IMG/VR virus record: IMGVR_UViG_3300042515_001790
Coordinates: 1-37,364 of that record
Source of the DNA: a virus
DNA: 37,364 nt
Strand: one strand, 5' to 3'
Positions within the stretch are counted from its first letter, which is position 1; each line of letters starts with the position of its first letter. The notes below the pieces were generated by a model. That model ran no database searches. It had not been told where the DNA came from and was given only the letters and a program-made list of their open reading frames with translations. This document shows, one piece after another, positions 31,797-37,364 of the stretch. The translations under genes were made by a program, and so were the position numbers.

Positions 31797-32165
31797 TTAG
31801 AAAGCCACAGCCTCTGTATCAACTGACTGAGACTTAGACAGCTTGGTGATCTTAGAAAAGTTGTTTACTCTAATACGTAGAGTACTATGCTTGACCCCAT
31901 CCTTTTCCCACGAGTCATTTCTAAGAGATCCTTCTACCATTACCAAGTCACCCTTCCTAAAGGATTCCGCTATAATCTCTGCTCCAGAATCCCAAGCTTC
32001 GCAATTAACAAAAGTGGTAATCTTATCCTTTTCGCCAGAAGCCTTGGTATATTCACGAGATACAGCAATGGTGAAATTTACCACAGACACAGGCTTTGAT
32101 CTGCCTTCGATTTTCCTAATCTCAGGATCACGAGTTAGATTACCTCTAAGTAATACAATATTCAT
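31797..32165 (-). CDS. ssb: Single-stranded DNA-binding protein
   Basis: 122 residues from the ATG at 32165, nine bases after AAAGGA; the in-frame TTG two codons upstream lies too close to it. The sequence MNIVLLRGNLTRDPEIR, VVNFTIAVSREYT, TFVNCEAWDSGAEIIAESFRKGDLVMVEG (in parts) and KHSTLRIRVNNF is the standard bacterial/phage SSB OB fold. The protein binds and protects unwound DNA at the replication fork. The usual acidic C-terminal tip (DDDIPF) is shortened to VDTEAVAF, so contacts with host partners may differ. It lies between its own promoter (32213-32241) and its own terminator (31741-31770), so it can be made in large amounts independently of polymerase genes, which fits its stoichiometric role. 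Confidence 0.95.
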   Translation of the reverse strand: MNIVLLRGNLTRDPEIRKIEGRSKPVSVVNFTIAVSREYTKASGEKDKITTFVNCEAWDSGAEIIAESFRKGDLVMVEGSLRNDSWEKDGVKHSTLRIRVNNFSKITKLSKSQSVDTEAVAF

Positions 32166-32212
32166 ATTCAAATTTCCTTTGTAAAAAGTTAAAAATCACG
32201 CAAACGCACAGT

Positions 32213-32241
32213 ATAGTATTGGTGGTGTACCAGCATGTCAA
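32213..32241 (-). promoter_or_regulatory. Predicted sigma70-type promoter of ssb
   Basis: On the minus strand a perfect TTGACA (32241-32236) is followed after 17 bases by TACTAT (32218-32213). The expected start is near 32206, leaving a leader of about 40 bases with AAAGGA before the ssb ATG. The TGA stop of the upstream polymerase gene lies inside the TTGACA, so the promoter uses the last bases of that gene. This is the best consensus match I saw in the window. Confidence 0.65.
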
Positions 32242-33788
32242 GTTTTTGCTAAAAACGTCTTTTCAGCAACAAACGAATCCTTATTTTTAGATATATTGCC
32301 CTTGATGATAATAATATTACCTTCAAATAATTGGTTACGGTATTGTCTAAAAGTTTCTGGAAAATATACCACAGAATCCAAACAGGCAGTACCATCATTT
32401 ATGGATAGAAAAGCCATCTCGGCTCCAGCATTTTTGCCCTTCTTTGTTTTGACTATATTGATATTCTCTATCTCACCGGCCACCATCAAATTATTGTTGC
32501 TGCATTTATTATGCTTAATGTCTCTACAAGAATGACTTACCATGTGAATATCATACATGTCTATTTTAGAACAGGAGATAGAATAACCCAACAACATGTT
32601 CTCAGTATCAACAAGCCATTCTATAGAGTCTTCAATGGAAAATGGAGGATTTTTCATTGTTTTACATAAATTATTGACTATTTCTTTACGTTTATTCAAA
32701 GTTATTTTTTCTTTTAATTGACACAGACTAGTATATAGATCATCTGTGTTCAAAGATATACTCTTAAGTAGAGCGACCTCTTTGGGTGTTAATTCTAATA
32801 ACATACTGTAATCCAACAGCATTTTGTTTCTGTGTAACTTCAAATAATCCAATGCTCCGGATTGAATTAGTGCTTTACTAGCTGTGGAATTCAATTCATA
32901 CAAAACATCTATCAAAAATTCTGTCCATTTTAATTTAGCAAGATCTAGATTGTCTGTATGTATTAGGTGTTTTAGTTTTTTAAATGCTGATTGACCAAAA
33001 CCTTTAATATCTGTTAGTCCGAAATATATATGTTGGTTTTTAAGTTCTATAAGATCGTTTAGCATTCTTACATCTGGATTACATATACTAATTCCCATCT
33101 CTATAGCATTTTGTACCAGTTCTTTAATTTCTTGTTGAGGATCTATTTTATCTTTGGCAAATCTTAGGTAAGCCGTAAAAAAATAAACAGGATAGTGAGC
33201 TTTAGCATATGCTGATAAGTAACAATTCATAGCATAACTAATAGCGTGCGATTTATTAAAAGAATATCTTTGACTTTTTTCGATCCATCCGAAAACCTGA
33301 TCAGCTTGTTCTGCATTTAATAATTTTCTATTAGCACAACCGTCTATAAATTTGATTTTAAGTTTTGCCATTTCTTCTGGTTTCTTTTTACCAATAGCTT
33401 TACGCAAATTGTCTGCTTCTTGCAAATCGAAACCAGCAATATCTTTAGCTATTTGCATAGCTTGTTCCTGATATACCATTTCACCATATGTAGTATTCAG
33501 AATAGGCTCCAAACACTCATGAAAATAATCGATATCTTCGACACCATTCTTTTTGTCGATATAGTGACTGGTTACGCTTTTTCCGTCTCTATATGCCTCC
33601 AAACATCCTGGTCGCATAATAGAAATTAGTGCAGCTAATTCTTCTATATTTGATGGTTTTAGTTTTTTAGCCAAAGACCTTCCTAGCCTGGACTCCAACT
33701 GAAAACACCCCTTAGTATTTCCATTTGATATTAAATTCCAGGTTTTGGAACAAGCCAAATCAATTTTAGATATATCTGCTTCAAACAT
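32238..33788 (-). CDS. dnaE: DNA polymerase III alpha subunit, C-terminal half (split gene)
   Basis: 516 residues from the ATG at 33788; it overlaps the exonuclease stop by eight bases (ATGTTTGA), and GTG (33800) and TTG (33794) are alternative starts. It carries the part of alpha from the fingers on: TKGCFQLESRLGRSLAKKL (near 25), ELAALISIMRPGCLEAY, YGEMVYQEQAMQIAKDIAG, LRKAIGKKKPEEMAKLK and FNKSHAISYAMNCYLSAY (near 175), all typical of DnaE. The helix-hairpin region (FGLTDIKGFGQSAFKKL) follows, then an OB domain from about 433 (VAGEIENINIVKTKKGKNAG). It ends after the OB fold, without the tau-binding region of E. coli alpha, and I see no clear clamp-binding motif. No catalytic aspartate is here; those lie in the partner gene at 34674-36548. 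The two chains must assemble to form the replicase. Confidence 0.9.
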   Translation of the reverse strand: MFEADISKIDLACSKTWNLISNGNTKGCFQLESRLGRSLAKKLKPSNIEELAALISIMRPGCLEAYRDGKSVTSHYIDKKNGVEDIDYFHECLEPILNTTYGEMVYQEQAMQIAKDIAGFDLQEADNLRKAIGKKKPEEMAKLKIKFIDGCANRKLLNAEQADQVFGWIEKSQRYSFNKSHAISYAMNCYLSAYAKAHYPVYFFTAYLRFAKDKIDPQQEIKELVQNAIEMGISICNPDVRMLNDLIELKNQHIYFGLTDIKGFGQSAFKKLKHLIHTDNLDLAKLKWTEFLIDVLYELNSTASKALIQSGALDYLKLHRNKMLLDYSMLLELTPKEVALLKSISLNTDDLYTSLCQLKEKITLNKRKEIVNNLCKTMKNPPFSIEDSIEWLVDTENMLLGYSISCSKIDMYDIHMVSHSCRDIKHNKCSNNNLMVAGEIENINIVKTKKGKNAGAEMAFLSINDGTACLDSVVYFPETFRQYRNQLFEGNIIIIKGNISKNKDSFVAEKTFLAKT

Positions 33789-34473
33789 CTCCAAAGGCAC
33801 CCTTAAATTTAATTTTTTGTGATAAATTCTTATGTAACTTTAAAAATCTAAGTAAGATATCAGCACAATCTTTTACATCTTTTAGAGCGTCGTGAGCATT
33901 ATCTTTAGATATAGAAAAATAATCTCTAACATTATCTAATGATATTGATTTGACATCTTCTAAATACATAAACCAATAATATAATAGATTCATAATATCT
34001 ATTACGTCTCGTGGGTAAAAAATATTACTATCGTTTTCTTTATTGACTGTATTAAATTTTTGAGCCATACGATTAACTATTTTTAGATCAAATCTGTTGA
34101 TATTATATCCAGAAGCTATAGGAGCAGAAAATTCATTTTTCTTACTAGTTCTCGAATGATACTTATCTAAATATCCACAGAATAAGGACCATGCTTGTTT
34201 TTGTGGCATAGCTTCTTTCCACGAACATAAAATATCATCTCTGGAACAATTCCTAACTTTGGCATGAAAATTTAGAATATCATTATCATATTCGTGATTA
34301 GGATTGAGTTCTAAGCTTTCTGGCTTAAGCATTATATTAAATTCGGAATCCTTAACTATTTCTAATTTTATTGGATCCACTATCACAGCAGCTATTTGTA
34401 CTGCACTACAAACATTAGGATTCACTCCGTCTGTTTCTAGATCAAAGATACATATTTTGTTACTAAATTTCAT
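33781..34473 (-). CDS. DnaQ-like 3'-5' proofreading exonuclease (DEDDh)
   Basis: 230 residues. All five active-site residues of the DEDDh family are visible: D11 and E13 (ICIFDLETDG), D129 (GYNINRFDLKIVNR), and H194 and D199 (DNAHDALKDV). It removes mispaired 3' ends, the role of DnaQ (epsilon) beside Pol III alpha. It has an insertion between motifs I and II (about 40-115) and a short C-terminal tail without an evident clamp-binding motif. It sits between the two halves of the alpha gene: its start overlaps the small upstream gene as ATGA, and its stop overlaps the C-terminal alpha half by eight bases. The genes are therefore likely made in fixed ratio. A general RNase T-like nuclease is the alternative, but the location argues for proofreading. 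Confidence 0.9.
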   Translation of the reverse strand: MKFSNKICIFDLETDGVNPNVCSAVQIAAVIVDPIKLEIVKDSEFNIMLKPESLELNPNHEYDNDILNFHAKVRNCSRDDILCSWKEAMPQKQAWSLFCGYLDKYHSRTSKKNEFSAPIASGYNINRFDLKIVNRMAQKFNTVNKENDSNIFYPRDVIDIMNLLYYWFMYLEDVKSISLDNVRDYFSISKDNAHDALKDVKDCADILLRFLKLHKNLSQKIKFKGAFGDV

Positions 34474-34649
34474 GCTGAAACCTTTACTCGCTGTAATGGA
34501 AGAATCATGACTTTTTCTTTGGTGTCGTTACGAATGGCATTAAGCACCTTGCAACAACTAAGTCTTTCTTCTCCTATCTTTGTATATTCTAAATCATCTA
34601 ATACGAATACAGAATTTACCTCAATATCAATAAACTGTTTTTCTAACAT
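34470..34649 (-). CDS. Small conserved-looking protein between the polymerase halves
   Basis: 59 residues, MLEKQFIDIEVNSVFVLDDL to KVSA. The ATG follows AAGGG at eight bases, and the TGA overlaps the start of the exonuclease gene as ATGA, so translation is coupled; these signals argue for a real gene despite its size. The pattern 'F.di..n.vFv.dd.eY.Ki....C.kvlNAi.......kv.i.P...V' resembles small beta-barrel proteins widespread in large phage genomes, which I know without function. It contains a CC pair (residues 32-33). Nothing links it to catalysis; from position it may bind the exonuclease or polymerase. Confidence 0.6.
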   Translation of the reverse strand: MLEKQFIDIEVNSVFVLDDLEYTKIGEERLSCCKVLNAIRNDTKEKVMILPLQRVKVSA

Positions 34650-34673
34650 ATTTAGAACCCTTTCTTTTTGGAA

Positions 34674-36548
34674 TCAGACCTGATGAGATAATAAATCTTT
34701 TATGCACATAATCTTATCTAGCATAGCGATACCTAGAATATCGAATTTTACAATACCTAAACTTTCTAGGTCTTGCATCTCCATACCGGCTATGGTCTGT
34801 TCGTTCCTACTATCATAAACCATAGGACAGAGTTCGGCAAGAGCCTGTGAACTGATAGCGATACCAGCCGCATGTTTAGATTGGTTGGTTTTGGTCCCTT
34901 CCAGCCTAATAGCCTGCTCGAAACGCTTCGCCAGAGGGCCAGACAAGTTTCCTTCATCGTCGATCTTGCACCACTGCTCAAGACCTTCTGAATTATTTTC
35001 TAATGCCCAACGAATAATCGAAGATTCCCCATACTCGTCTTTCATTTCTTGTAGTTCGTCCGCAATTTTTGCTTCATCTGGTATATTTTTAGTAATCATA
35101 TTCATTTCATCAAAACTAATATTACCATAAACTCTTAATACGTCTTTTAAAGCTCCTCTGCCTTTCATAGTATTAAAAGTAATCATTTGAGACACTTTGC
35201 TAGAACCATACTGATTTTTAATATATTGAATAATTTCTTCTCTCTTGTTGATAGGTACGTCAATATCAATATCTGGCATAGAAATATGATCTTTAGTATT
35301 TCGACCAGCATTATAAAATCTATCAAACAGTAGTCCATATTGCATAGGATCTATACTAGTGATGCCTATTAAATATGATACTAGACATCCAGCCGCACTT
35401 CCTCTTCCTGGGCCGGGAAGCCAGTCATTTTGTTTTACATGATTAACTATATCCTGTACGATAAGAAAATAACTCGACAGACCAGCCCCCTGTAGAACCT
35501 CTAATTCGTATTTTATACGATCAACATAATTATTTTTGACATTATCTTCCAGACTATTGAGATTTTTATTTTTCCATCCATGCCTACATAATTCTCTAAG
35601 ATACTCGTCTTCAGATATTTGGTTTGGACATTTAAAATCTGGTAAAGTTGGCTTGTGTACTATATCATAGTTTTCGCATAAACTATTTATATAGTGAGTA
35701 TTGTCTAATTCTTCTTCAAAATGTAAAGCAGACATTTCTTGATGATCTAATATATGATAATTATCAGAAAGAAAGAAGGTGCCCATAGGGACATCGTCTT
35801 TATTTAGAATTTTTGTATTTATAGCTGGTAACGTAGTTTTTAAATTATTGCACAACAGAATCCTTTGGTCAACAGCATCTTCTTTTCTACAGTAGTGAGC
35901 ATCGGGTGTACAAATTGCTTTAATATTTTTTTGACGAGCTATTTTTCTAACACAATCTGTGAGATGTTTTTGTATTAATAGATTCTGAGAATCCATTAAT
36001 TGTGTTTCTAGGAAAAAATTATCTTTTCCAAAGGCATTCTGTAATAGATCAATATGTTTTATGGCCCCTGTTTCCCAATCATCTTTTATTTTGTCGTCAC
36101 GAACAATACAATCTGCTACAGTCGATCCTAGGTGTCCAGATATGCCTATAAGATTACCGTCTAACAGAGATCCTAATGTTTGAATATCTAATCTAGGTTT
36201 ATAGTAATAATAATCAGGATTGTTTGATTCAGAAACTATTTTTATTAGGGTTTTCCATCCTTGATAGTTTTTTGCCAATACTAATAAATGAGCTAAAGAT
36301 CTGTTTTCTGGGGTTTTAGTAGATGGAGATTGATCACAAATATATAATTCACAACCAAGAATAGGTTTAATGCCCTTCTTTTTCATTATGCTGTGAAACT
36401 TTACAGTACCGGATATAGTCCCGTGATCAGTGATTGCACAAGTATCAACACCTATTTCTGCACACCTATCCGCTATTTGATCAGGTTTTGACAAACCATC
36501 AAGTAAGGAATAATGACTGTGTACATGTAGAGGAATATATGTTTTCAT
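34674..36548 (-). CDS. dnaE: DNA polymerase III alpha subunit, N-terminal half: PHP and palm (split gene)
   Basis: 624 residues. Residues 1-260 form the PHP domain with intact metal-binding motifs: H8, H10 (LHVHSHYSLLDG), D41-H42 (AITDHG), GCELYI and TPDAHYC; unlike E. coli alpha it looks able to bind metals. The palm has GPGRGSAAGCLVSYLIGI near 378, the catalytic pair in MPDIDIDVP near 424, and the third aspartate in KFDILG near 601. The chain stops about 20 residues later (IKDLLSHQV), at the point where E. coli alpha has the loop before its fingers domain (FQLES). The rest of alpha is encoded separately at 32238-33788. No intein sequence is present at either end. The start overlaps the nuclease gene stop as ATGA. 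All catalytic aspartates are on this chain. Confidence 0.92.
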   Translation of the reverse strand: MKTYIPLHVHSHYSLLDGLSKPDQIADRCAEIGVDTCAITDHGTISGTVKFHSIMKKKGIKPILGCELYICDQSPSTKTPENRSLAHLLVLAKNYQGWKTLIKIVSESNNPDYYYYKPRLDIQTLGSLLDGNLIGISGHLGSTVADCIVRDDKIKDDWETGAIKHIDLLQNAFGKDNFFLETQLMDSQNLLIQKHLTDCVRKIARQKNIKAICTPDAHYCRKEDAVDQRILLCNNLKTTLPAINTKILNKDDVPMGTFFLSDNYHILDHQEMSALHFEEELDNTHYINSLCENYDIVHKPTLPDFKCPNQISEDEYLRELCRHGWKNKNLNSLEDNVKNNYVDRIKYELEVLQGAGLSSYFLIVQDIVNHVKQNDWLPGPGRGSAAGCLVSYLIGITSIDPMQYGLLFDRFYNAGRNTKDHISMPDIDIDVPINKREEIIQYIKNQYGSSKVSQMITFNTMKGRGALKDVLRVYGNISFDEMNMITKNIPDEAKIADELQEMKDEYGESSIIRWALENNSEGLEQWCKIDDEGNLSGPLAKRFEQAIRLEGTKTNQSKHAAGIAISSQALAELCPMVYDSRNEQTIAGMEMQDLESLGIVKFDILGIAMLDKIMCIKDLLSHQV

Positions 36549-37364
36549 GTTTGTCCCGGTGGTTTATAAAAGCCAAAATTATGATTAGGATGTTTATACT
36601 GCTGTGTAACAAATTGAATATCATATAATTCAATATCGTGTTTGATTTGTTCACATTTAGTCATATACTTATCTTTAGGAGATATTTGACCATCTCTGTA
36701 TTCAACAAGTGGGGGGACTGCGGTATTTTCGAACGTGGTTTTTCCCAAATGACACAGCTTACTACACATCCACGATTTTGTCAATTTTGGCTTCTTTGAT
36801 TTTTTTATGATTTCAAATTTTTGTCTCAACATGTCTTCTGTCGCTATTAAGTCCTTTTTATCAAAACAAATAGAGAAAGCCCCACCATCGTTAATAAAAT
36901 TAATAGAAACTATTACATGATCAATTTCTGGATATAAGCGAGTTAAAGCATAATGATAAATTCTTAATTGTGGATCTTTTTCTAAGTCTTCTTGTTCTTT
37001 AGTTTTACCAGTAGCCCAATTTAATCTTTTACCTGTTTTCCAGTCTATAATTTCTAATGTATTATCATTTACCTTAGTTATAAGATCAATAGTACCTTTT
37101 AGTGCCAAATGACCGGATATTTCTTGATCGTCTATAGTAAAACTGTATTTGCTCCATGGTTTTTTTATTTCAAAATCAAAGTGCTGTTCTGCTTCAACTA
37201 TATGTCTTTTTCTAGGATCAAACATCCCATTATTATAATTTAAGGTTTTATATACCCATTCTCGACAATCCTTTTTATCTACTGGCATCCATTTATGATG
37301 TTGGTTTGTGTTTGTATAATAATCATATACCTGTTCAATAATAGTATCTAAATCGTAGTTATTA
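36545..37364 (-). CDS. PD-(D/E)XK nuclease, RecB/Cas4-like (5' end outside window)
   Basis: The frame stays open to the right edge, so the start lies beyond it; about 272 residues are visible and the ATG at 37288 is probably internal. Counting from that Met, the nuclease motifs are E32/E34 (HIVEAEQHFDF), D68 (LKGTIDLI), D82-W-K84 (EIIDWKTGKR), and the Q107-x3-Y111 helix (DPQLRIYHYAL): the order of RecB-family and Cas4-like exonucleases. Cysteines near the C-terminal part (WMCSKLC, KYMTKC) could belong to an iron-sulphur cluster as in Cas4/AddB, but the spacing is not a clear match. It is coupled to the polymerase gene by ATGA. A role in processing DNA ends during replication or recombination is likely. 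A CRISPR link is not supported, since no cas genes or repeats are present. Confidence 0.75.
   Translation of the reverse strand, partial: NNYDLDTIIEQVYDYYTNTNQHHKWMPVDKKDCREWVYKTLNYNNGMFDPRKRHIVEAEQHFDFEIKKPWSKYSFTIDDQEISGHLALKGTIDLITKVNDNTLEIIDWKTGKRLNWATGKTKEQEDLEKDPQLRIYHYALTRLYPEIDHVIVSINFINDGGAFSICFDKKDLIATEDMLRQKFEIIKKSKKPKLTKSWMCSKLCHLGKTTFENTAVPPLVEYRDGQISPKDKYMTKCEQIKHDIELYDIQFVTQQYKHPNHNFGFYKPPGQT

What the first reader, a model, noticed from the sequence alone, without database searches (positions are those of the whole stretch)
32238..36548. Replicase split into two genes, with a proofreader and a small gene between
The Pol III alpha protein is coded by two separate genes. The first ends about 20 residues after the third catalytic aspartate (KFDILG); the second begins about 28 residues before FQLES. 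Compared with E. coli alpha from memory, only a few loop residues are lost, so nothing essential seems missing. In between are a 59-residue gene and a DnaQ-like exonuclease, all coupled by ATGA-type overlaps or close spacing. This differs from the cyanobacterial split DnaE, which is cut at FNKSHS and joined by a split intein; here neither end shows intein sequence. The two chains must work as a non-covalent complex, with all catalytic aspartates on one and the fingers and OB domain on the other.
Basis: partly seen in the sequence, partly recalled or inferred. Interest (0 to 1): 0.8.

Follow-up and report, generated by a model that had tools for sequence, protein, structure and literature searches.

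The report
Phage replicase permanently split in two
A large, uncultured group of phages carries its only recognised DNA-copying enzyme as two separate, intein-free proteins with a proofreader gene between them, an old and heritable arrangement that suggests this enzyme can be cut at its catalytic core and still work.

Summary
DnaE (Pol III alpha) is cut between palm and fingers. The N chain (34674-36548, 624 aa) carries PHP, palm, thumb and all three catalytic Asp (D426, D428, D603 = E. coli D401, D403, D555). The C chain (ATG 33788 to 32238, 516 aa) carries fingers, HhH and OB. A 59-aa gene and a DEDDh exonuclease lie between. No intein or intron was detected. It is not an artefact: 126 of 126 non-redundant split relatives have the same break with the exonuclease between the halves. 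Long contigs carry one copy; 20 tested have no PolA or PolB. Both halves are under strong purifying selection. The split group is one clade. One member (L158/L159) has N and C in one ORF with the exonuclease upstream; the tree nests it inside the split clade (p-AU 0.008), so it is probably a re-fusion. A non-covalent two-chain replicase is the best explanation; complex formation was not tested. Split Pol III alpha is not new in phages (PMC7824862 reports a minimal version; two Bacillus phage records show other breaks). New here, as far as the held papers show, are the break point, the exonuclease between the halves, the clade-wide age and the re-fusion.

The parts
34674..36548 (-). DnaE-N: PHP + palm/thumb half of Pol III alpha, 624 aa, with all three catalytic Asp (D426, D428, D603)
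34470..34649 (-). orf59: small conserved protein (clade A pattern: F..l.vg..F..n...Y.ki...rvSCC..iNa), function unknown; its stop overlaps the exonuclease start (ATGA)
   Evidence: no Pfam or PHROG match
33781..34473 (-). DnaQ-like DEDDh 3'-5' exonuclease, 230 aa (FDLETD, GYNINRFD, HDALKD motifs)
   Evidence: Pfam RNase_T E 4.9e-9, phrog_192 polymerase exonuclease subunit E 9.2e-19; motifs read by eye
32238..33788 (-). DnaE-C: fingers, HhH and OB half of Pol III alpha, 516 aa from the ATG that overlaps the exonuclease stop (ATGTTTGA); the ORF listing gives an upstream GTG at 33800
36545..37288 (-). PD-(D/E)XK nuclease, upstream of DnaE-N in the clade; probably longer, running past the window edge (about 345-365 aa in relatives)
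31797..32171 (-). single-strand DNA-binding protein, downstream of DnaE-C
   Evidence: Pfam SSB E 1.4e-25; same place in relatives

Best explanation
The locus encodes a real, single-copy, two-chain C-family replicase. Chain N (PHP, palm, thumb; all catalytic Asp) and chain C (fingers, HhH, OB) are translated from one co-directional operon together with a DnaQ-type proofreader and assemble without a covalent bond into one Pol III alpha-like enzyme. The gene split once, in the common ancestor of a large uncultured phage clade, at the loop after the first helix beyond the third catalytic Asp, so that a small-gene + exonuclease block now lies between the halves. It has been inherited since, and was undone once by re-fusion (L158/L159). 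Shown: anatomy, completeness, intact catalytic residues, purifying selection, clade-wide fixation, single copy, absence of detectable inteins, the fused relative. Inferred: physical assembly, activity, the exonuclease as partner, and how the split arose.
For: Domains complete across the two ORFs. E. coli D401/D403/D555 map to window D426/D428/D603, invariant in 127/127 relatives; fingers motifs FQLES, RPG, YQEQ, RKxxGKK and NKSH almost invariant. 126 non-redundant split relatives, exonuclease between the halves in all 126. Three other contigs hold the window's own DnaE halves at 100%. One PF07733 and one PF17657 match in nearly all of 20 contigs of 79-232 kb, likewise PF17657 in further contigs; no PolA or PolB in 20 contigs. 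dN/dS mostly 0.02-0.08 for N, C and exonuclease alike. N and C distances correlate at r=0.94. L158/L159 encodes N and C in one ORF; its linker (38 aa) equals the N tail plus C head of its sister clade (14+24). C-chain model matches Pol III alpha structures best.
Against: No direct evidence of a complex or of activity; no multimer prediction was possible. The C chain modelled alone has low confidence at 60-88 and 100-105, which fits a missing partner but proves nothing. The fused L159 model is uninformative for the fingers because the C rows were misaligned in A3. Correlated N/C distances show co-inheritance, not contact. No bacterial-type clamp or clamp loader was found, so the rest of the replisome is unclear.
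Confidence: 0.85

Rival explanations
1. The halves are joined after all, by an undetected split intein, trans-splicing intron or recoding, giving one chain.
For: Split inteins do occur in this clade at other DnaE sites: IntN/IntC around PGRG|S in L044/L071 and at FNK|SH in L147, L159 and L160.
Against: No Hint/intein domain on the window chains, while Pfam does see such domains on L044, L060 and L159. No intron family at the locus. N ends 21 residues after the third Asp and C starts 28 residues before FQLES with extein-like sequence only. Two conserved genes lie between.
Confidence: 0.04
2. The unsplit form is ancestral within the clade: L158/L159 kept it, and the other subclades split independently.
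For: L158/L159 has an intact N-C junction, and all outgroups are unsplit.
Against: The tree puts L159 as sister of clade B inside (D,(L159,B)), and placing it outside all split rows is rejected (p-AU 0.0076). This would need at least four separate splits, each with the exonuclease landing between the halves.
Confidence: 0.07
3. One half is decaying or repurposed, and replication relies on another polymerase.
For: PHP metal ligands are lost in many relatives outside clade A, so parts of DnaE do decay in this group.
Against: Palm and fingers motifs invariant or nearly so, dN/dS mostly 0.02-0.08 on both halves, no PolA/PolB in 20 contigs.
Confidence: 0.03
4. Assembly or annotation artefact.
For: None found.
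Against: Same arrangement in three other contigs at 100% identity and 126 non-redundant relatives.
Confidence: 0.005

Closest known systems
Bacterial DnaE / DNA polymerase III alpha (E. coli DnaE)
   Same: Homologous over PHP, palm, thumb, fingers, HhH and OB; same catalytic Asp
   Different: Two chains; no C-terminal region after the OB fold matching the E. coli tau-binding part (C chain ends at the OB)
Minimal split Pol III alpha of group 2.2 jumbo phages (PMC7824862)
   Same: A phage Pol III alpha on two proteins, proposed to reconstitute
   Different: By that paper: minimal, only the core catalytic and template-binding domains, distant genes, accompanies a PolB, broken between NTP-binding and Mg-binding parts. 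Here: full domain set, one operon, no PolB or PolA, broken after all three Asp
Broken DnaE genes in Bacillus phages KLEB27-3 (OM634661) and Jayan (PQ299153)
   Same: DnaE in two ORFs, no intein seen by eye
   Different: KLEB27-3 is cut inside FQIE with an HNH endonuclease gene between; Jayan is cut just before the first Asp pair. No exonuclease between the halves
Cyanobacterial split-intein DnaE
   Same: DnaE encoded in two pieces
   Different: Cut at the FNKSHS region and joined by a split intein (general knowledge; PMC3919608 mentions intein-split cyanobacterial sequences); here a different site and no intein
Fractured phage genes with split inteins, e.g. PolB of MIJ3 (PMC6892783)
   Same: Phage polymerase genes interrupted by another gene; such events also occur in this clade (L044, L147, L159)
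   Different: The main split carries no intein or endonuclease

Membership tests
C-family DNA polymerase (DnaE / Pol III alpha) | Catalytic Asp of the palm (E. coli D401, D403, D555) | tested here: met
   D426, D428, D603; invariant in 127/127
C-family DNA polymerase (DnaE / Pol III alpha) | PHP, palm/thumb, fingers, HhH, OB domains | tested here: met
   Pfam PHP, DNA_pol3_alpha, DNA_pol3_finger, HHH_6, tRNA_anti-codon across the two chains
C-family DNA polymerase (DnaE / Pol III alpha) | Polymerase activity | not testable with these tools
   no assay possible
Cyanobacterial-type split-intein DnaE | Intein halves at the break | tested here: not met
   no Hint/intein match on either chain; ends are extein-like
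Cyanobacterial-type split-intein DnaE | Break at the FNKSHS region | tested here: not met
   NKSH is intact inside the C chain, residues 178-181
Minimal split Pol III alpha of jumbo phages (PMC7824862) | Lacks the other Pol III domains | tested here: not met
   PHP, HhH and OB present
Minimal split Pol III alpha of jumbo phages (PMC7824862) | Distantly located genes, beside a family B polymerase | tested here: not met
   one operon; no PF00136 match in 20 contigs
Endonuclease-interrupted phage DnaE | Homing endonuclease gene between the halves | tested here: not met
   only orf59 and a DEDDh exonuclease lie between
DEDDh (DnaQ) proofreading exonuclease | RNase_T fold with DxE, NxxxFD and HxAxxD motifs | tested here: met
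   Pfam RNase_T 4.9e-9; motifs read by eye
DEDDh (DnaQ) proofreading exonuclease | Binds this polymerase and proofreads | not testable with these tools
   suggested only by fixed gene order

The most novel reading that the evidence does not exclude
The exonuclease (with or without orf59) is the bridge that holds palm and fingers chains together, so that the polymerase can only form with its proofreader present: a replicase whose two catalytic halves and proofreader assemble as an obligate complex, co-translationally from one operon.
Probability: 0.15. Interest if true: 0.8.

Novelty: new variant of a known kind. Interest (0 to 1): 0.58.

Why it matters
Replicative polymerases are almost always single chains around the active site. 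Here a break between palm and fingers is fixed across a diverse phage clade and appears to have been reversed once, a natural hint that the two halves act as one enzyme. It makes testable how much covalent continuity a replicase needs, and gives a ready-made split polymerase for biochemistry. The clade also shows repeated further fractures by split inteins and homing endonucleases at several sites in the same gene.

Tried and rejected
Intein or intron at the break: none. Second alpha gene or other polymerase: none. Ancestral unsplit L159: rejected by the AU test, although the rooting rests on distant, partly long-branched outgroups. L159 fused model as a surrogate for the complex: failed for the fingers, because MAFFT placed C rows over the N region. 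Named relatives of the exonuclease and the PD-(D/E)XK protein among cultured phages: no match. The library lacks most subscription papers, and the original fractured-genes paper (gkp095) is not held.

Full report
Observation. The minus strand carries, in order, a PD-(D/E)XK nuclease, DnaE-N (34674-36548, 624 aa), orf59 (34470-34649), a DnaQ-like exonuclease (33781-34473) and DnaE-C (32238-33788), then SSB. N ends 21 residues after the third catalytic Asp; C, from its ATG, starts 28 residues before FQLES. In most relatives the C chain has about 22 extra N-terminal residues with a CGC motif; the window's own subgroup lacks them.

Is it real and shared? Three other contigs carry the window's own DnaE halves at 100% identity, one truncated within C. 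Searches with this and related proteins gave 284 records, window included; 257 hold both halves, 133 after removing near-copies, of which 6 are unsplit outgroups. Of the remaining 127, 126 are split, all with the exonuclease between the halves, and one (L159) is fused. In 20 contigs of 79-232 kb there is one PF07733 and one PF17657 match each, except G011, where N is broken again; a second set of 20 contigs shows the same for PF17657, except G035 with two pieces. Twenty contigs have no PolA or PolB, no bacterial clamp and no clamp-loader match, and all have DnaB. Contigs may be fragments, so absences are not proof.

Is it functional? Palm Asp are invariant in 127/127 and fingers motifs nearly so. 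dN/dS of close pairs is mostly 0.02-0.08 for both halves and the exonuclease, apart from one near-identical pair and saturated pairs (NG86, rough at high dS). The PHP metal ligands are intact in clade A, to which the window belongs (the first two lie in a region truncated in some rows), but lost in many relatives elsewhere. The C chain modelled alone has mean pLDDT 82.6, with weak stretches at 60-88 and 100-105, and its best structural matches are Pol III alpha structures.

History. In an IQ-TREE tree of 40 rows the split group with L159 is one clade (100/100), with subclades A (window), B, D, E and F; L159 is sister of B (99/97). Holding L159 outside all split rows is rejected, p-AU 0.0076. 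So one split and one re-fusion is the simplest account. In L159 the order is nuclease, small gene, exonuclease, N-C, against nuclease, N, small gene, exonuclease, C in clade B. A move of the small-gene + exonuclease block into or out of DnaE, or tandem duplication with complementary loss, would explain both states; these were not distinguished. The outgroups are distant and two long branches meet there, so rooting is the weak point.

Further fractures. L044/L071: split intein at PGRG|S with an endonuclease-like ORF between. L029: N broken near the first Asp pair with a LAGLIDADG ORF between. L147, L159, L160: split intein at FNK|SH with a NUMOD3/DUF559-type ORF between, the domains tested on L159. 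L060: intein inside C. These make a mobile-element origin of the main split plausible, but no trace of one remains at the break.

Known work. PMC7824862 describes a minimal Pol III alpha in group 2.2 jumbo phages, split into two distantly encoded proteins and proposed to reconstitute. Bacillus phages KLEB27-3 and Jayan have DnaE in two ORFs at other positions. PHROG profiles that cover only parts of DnaE (phrog_13169, 12219, 21652, 7513, 11165) hint at more. A split replicase in phages is therefore a known kind; this break point, the proofreader between the halves, the clade-wide age and the re-fusion are the new features as far as the held papers show.

Limits. No complex was predicted or assayed. 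Roles of orf59 and of the conserved exonuclease tail are unknown.

Noticed in passing
window 34674-36548 (residues H8, H10, D17, H42, E67, H87, H139, D216, H218): PHP metal ligands look intact in clade A but are lost in many other subclades, so window-type phages may have two proofreading nucleases (PHP and DnaQ).
   Followed up: partly
window 33784-33850; C-terminus of the exonuclease: The exonuclease tail carries a conserved K-x-K-F-x-x-[AS]-F-like motif in most subclades, possibly a docking site.
   Followed up: no
L147:5170-8026, L159:3334-8020, L160:5192-8017: Split inteins in phage DnaE at FNK|SH, a few residues from the cyanobacterial site, with a NUMOD3/DUF559-type ORF between (domains tested on L159).
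   Followed up: partly
L029:2074-5067: DnaE-N broken near the first Asp pair with a LAGLIDADG ORF between; the first piece runs on into a degraded-looking version of the motif.
   Followed up: partly
L029:332-1960: The PD-(D/E)XK nuclease gene of the same locus carries an inserted LAGLIDADG-type element ending in THN, intein-like.
   Followed up: no
clade A C chains, e.g. L070:5920-7545: About 22 extra N-terminal residues with a CGC motif on DnaE-C, absent from the window's own subgroup.
   Followed up: partly
20 clade contigs: No bacterial sliding clamp or clamp-loader match although the only replicase found is Pol III-like; host clamp use or an unrecognised clamp is possible.
   Followed up: no
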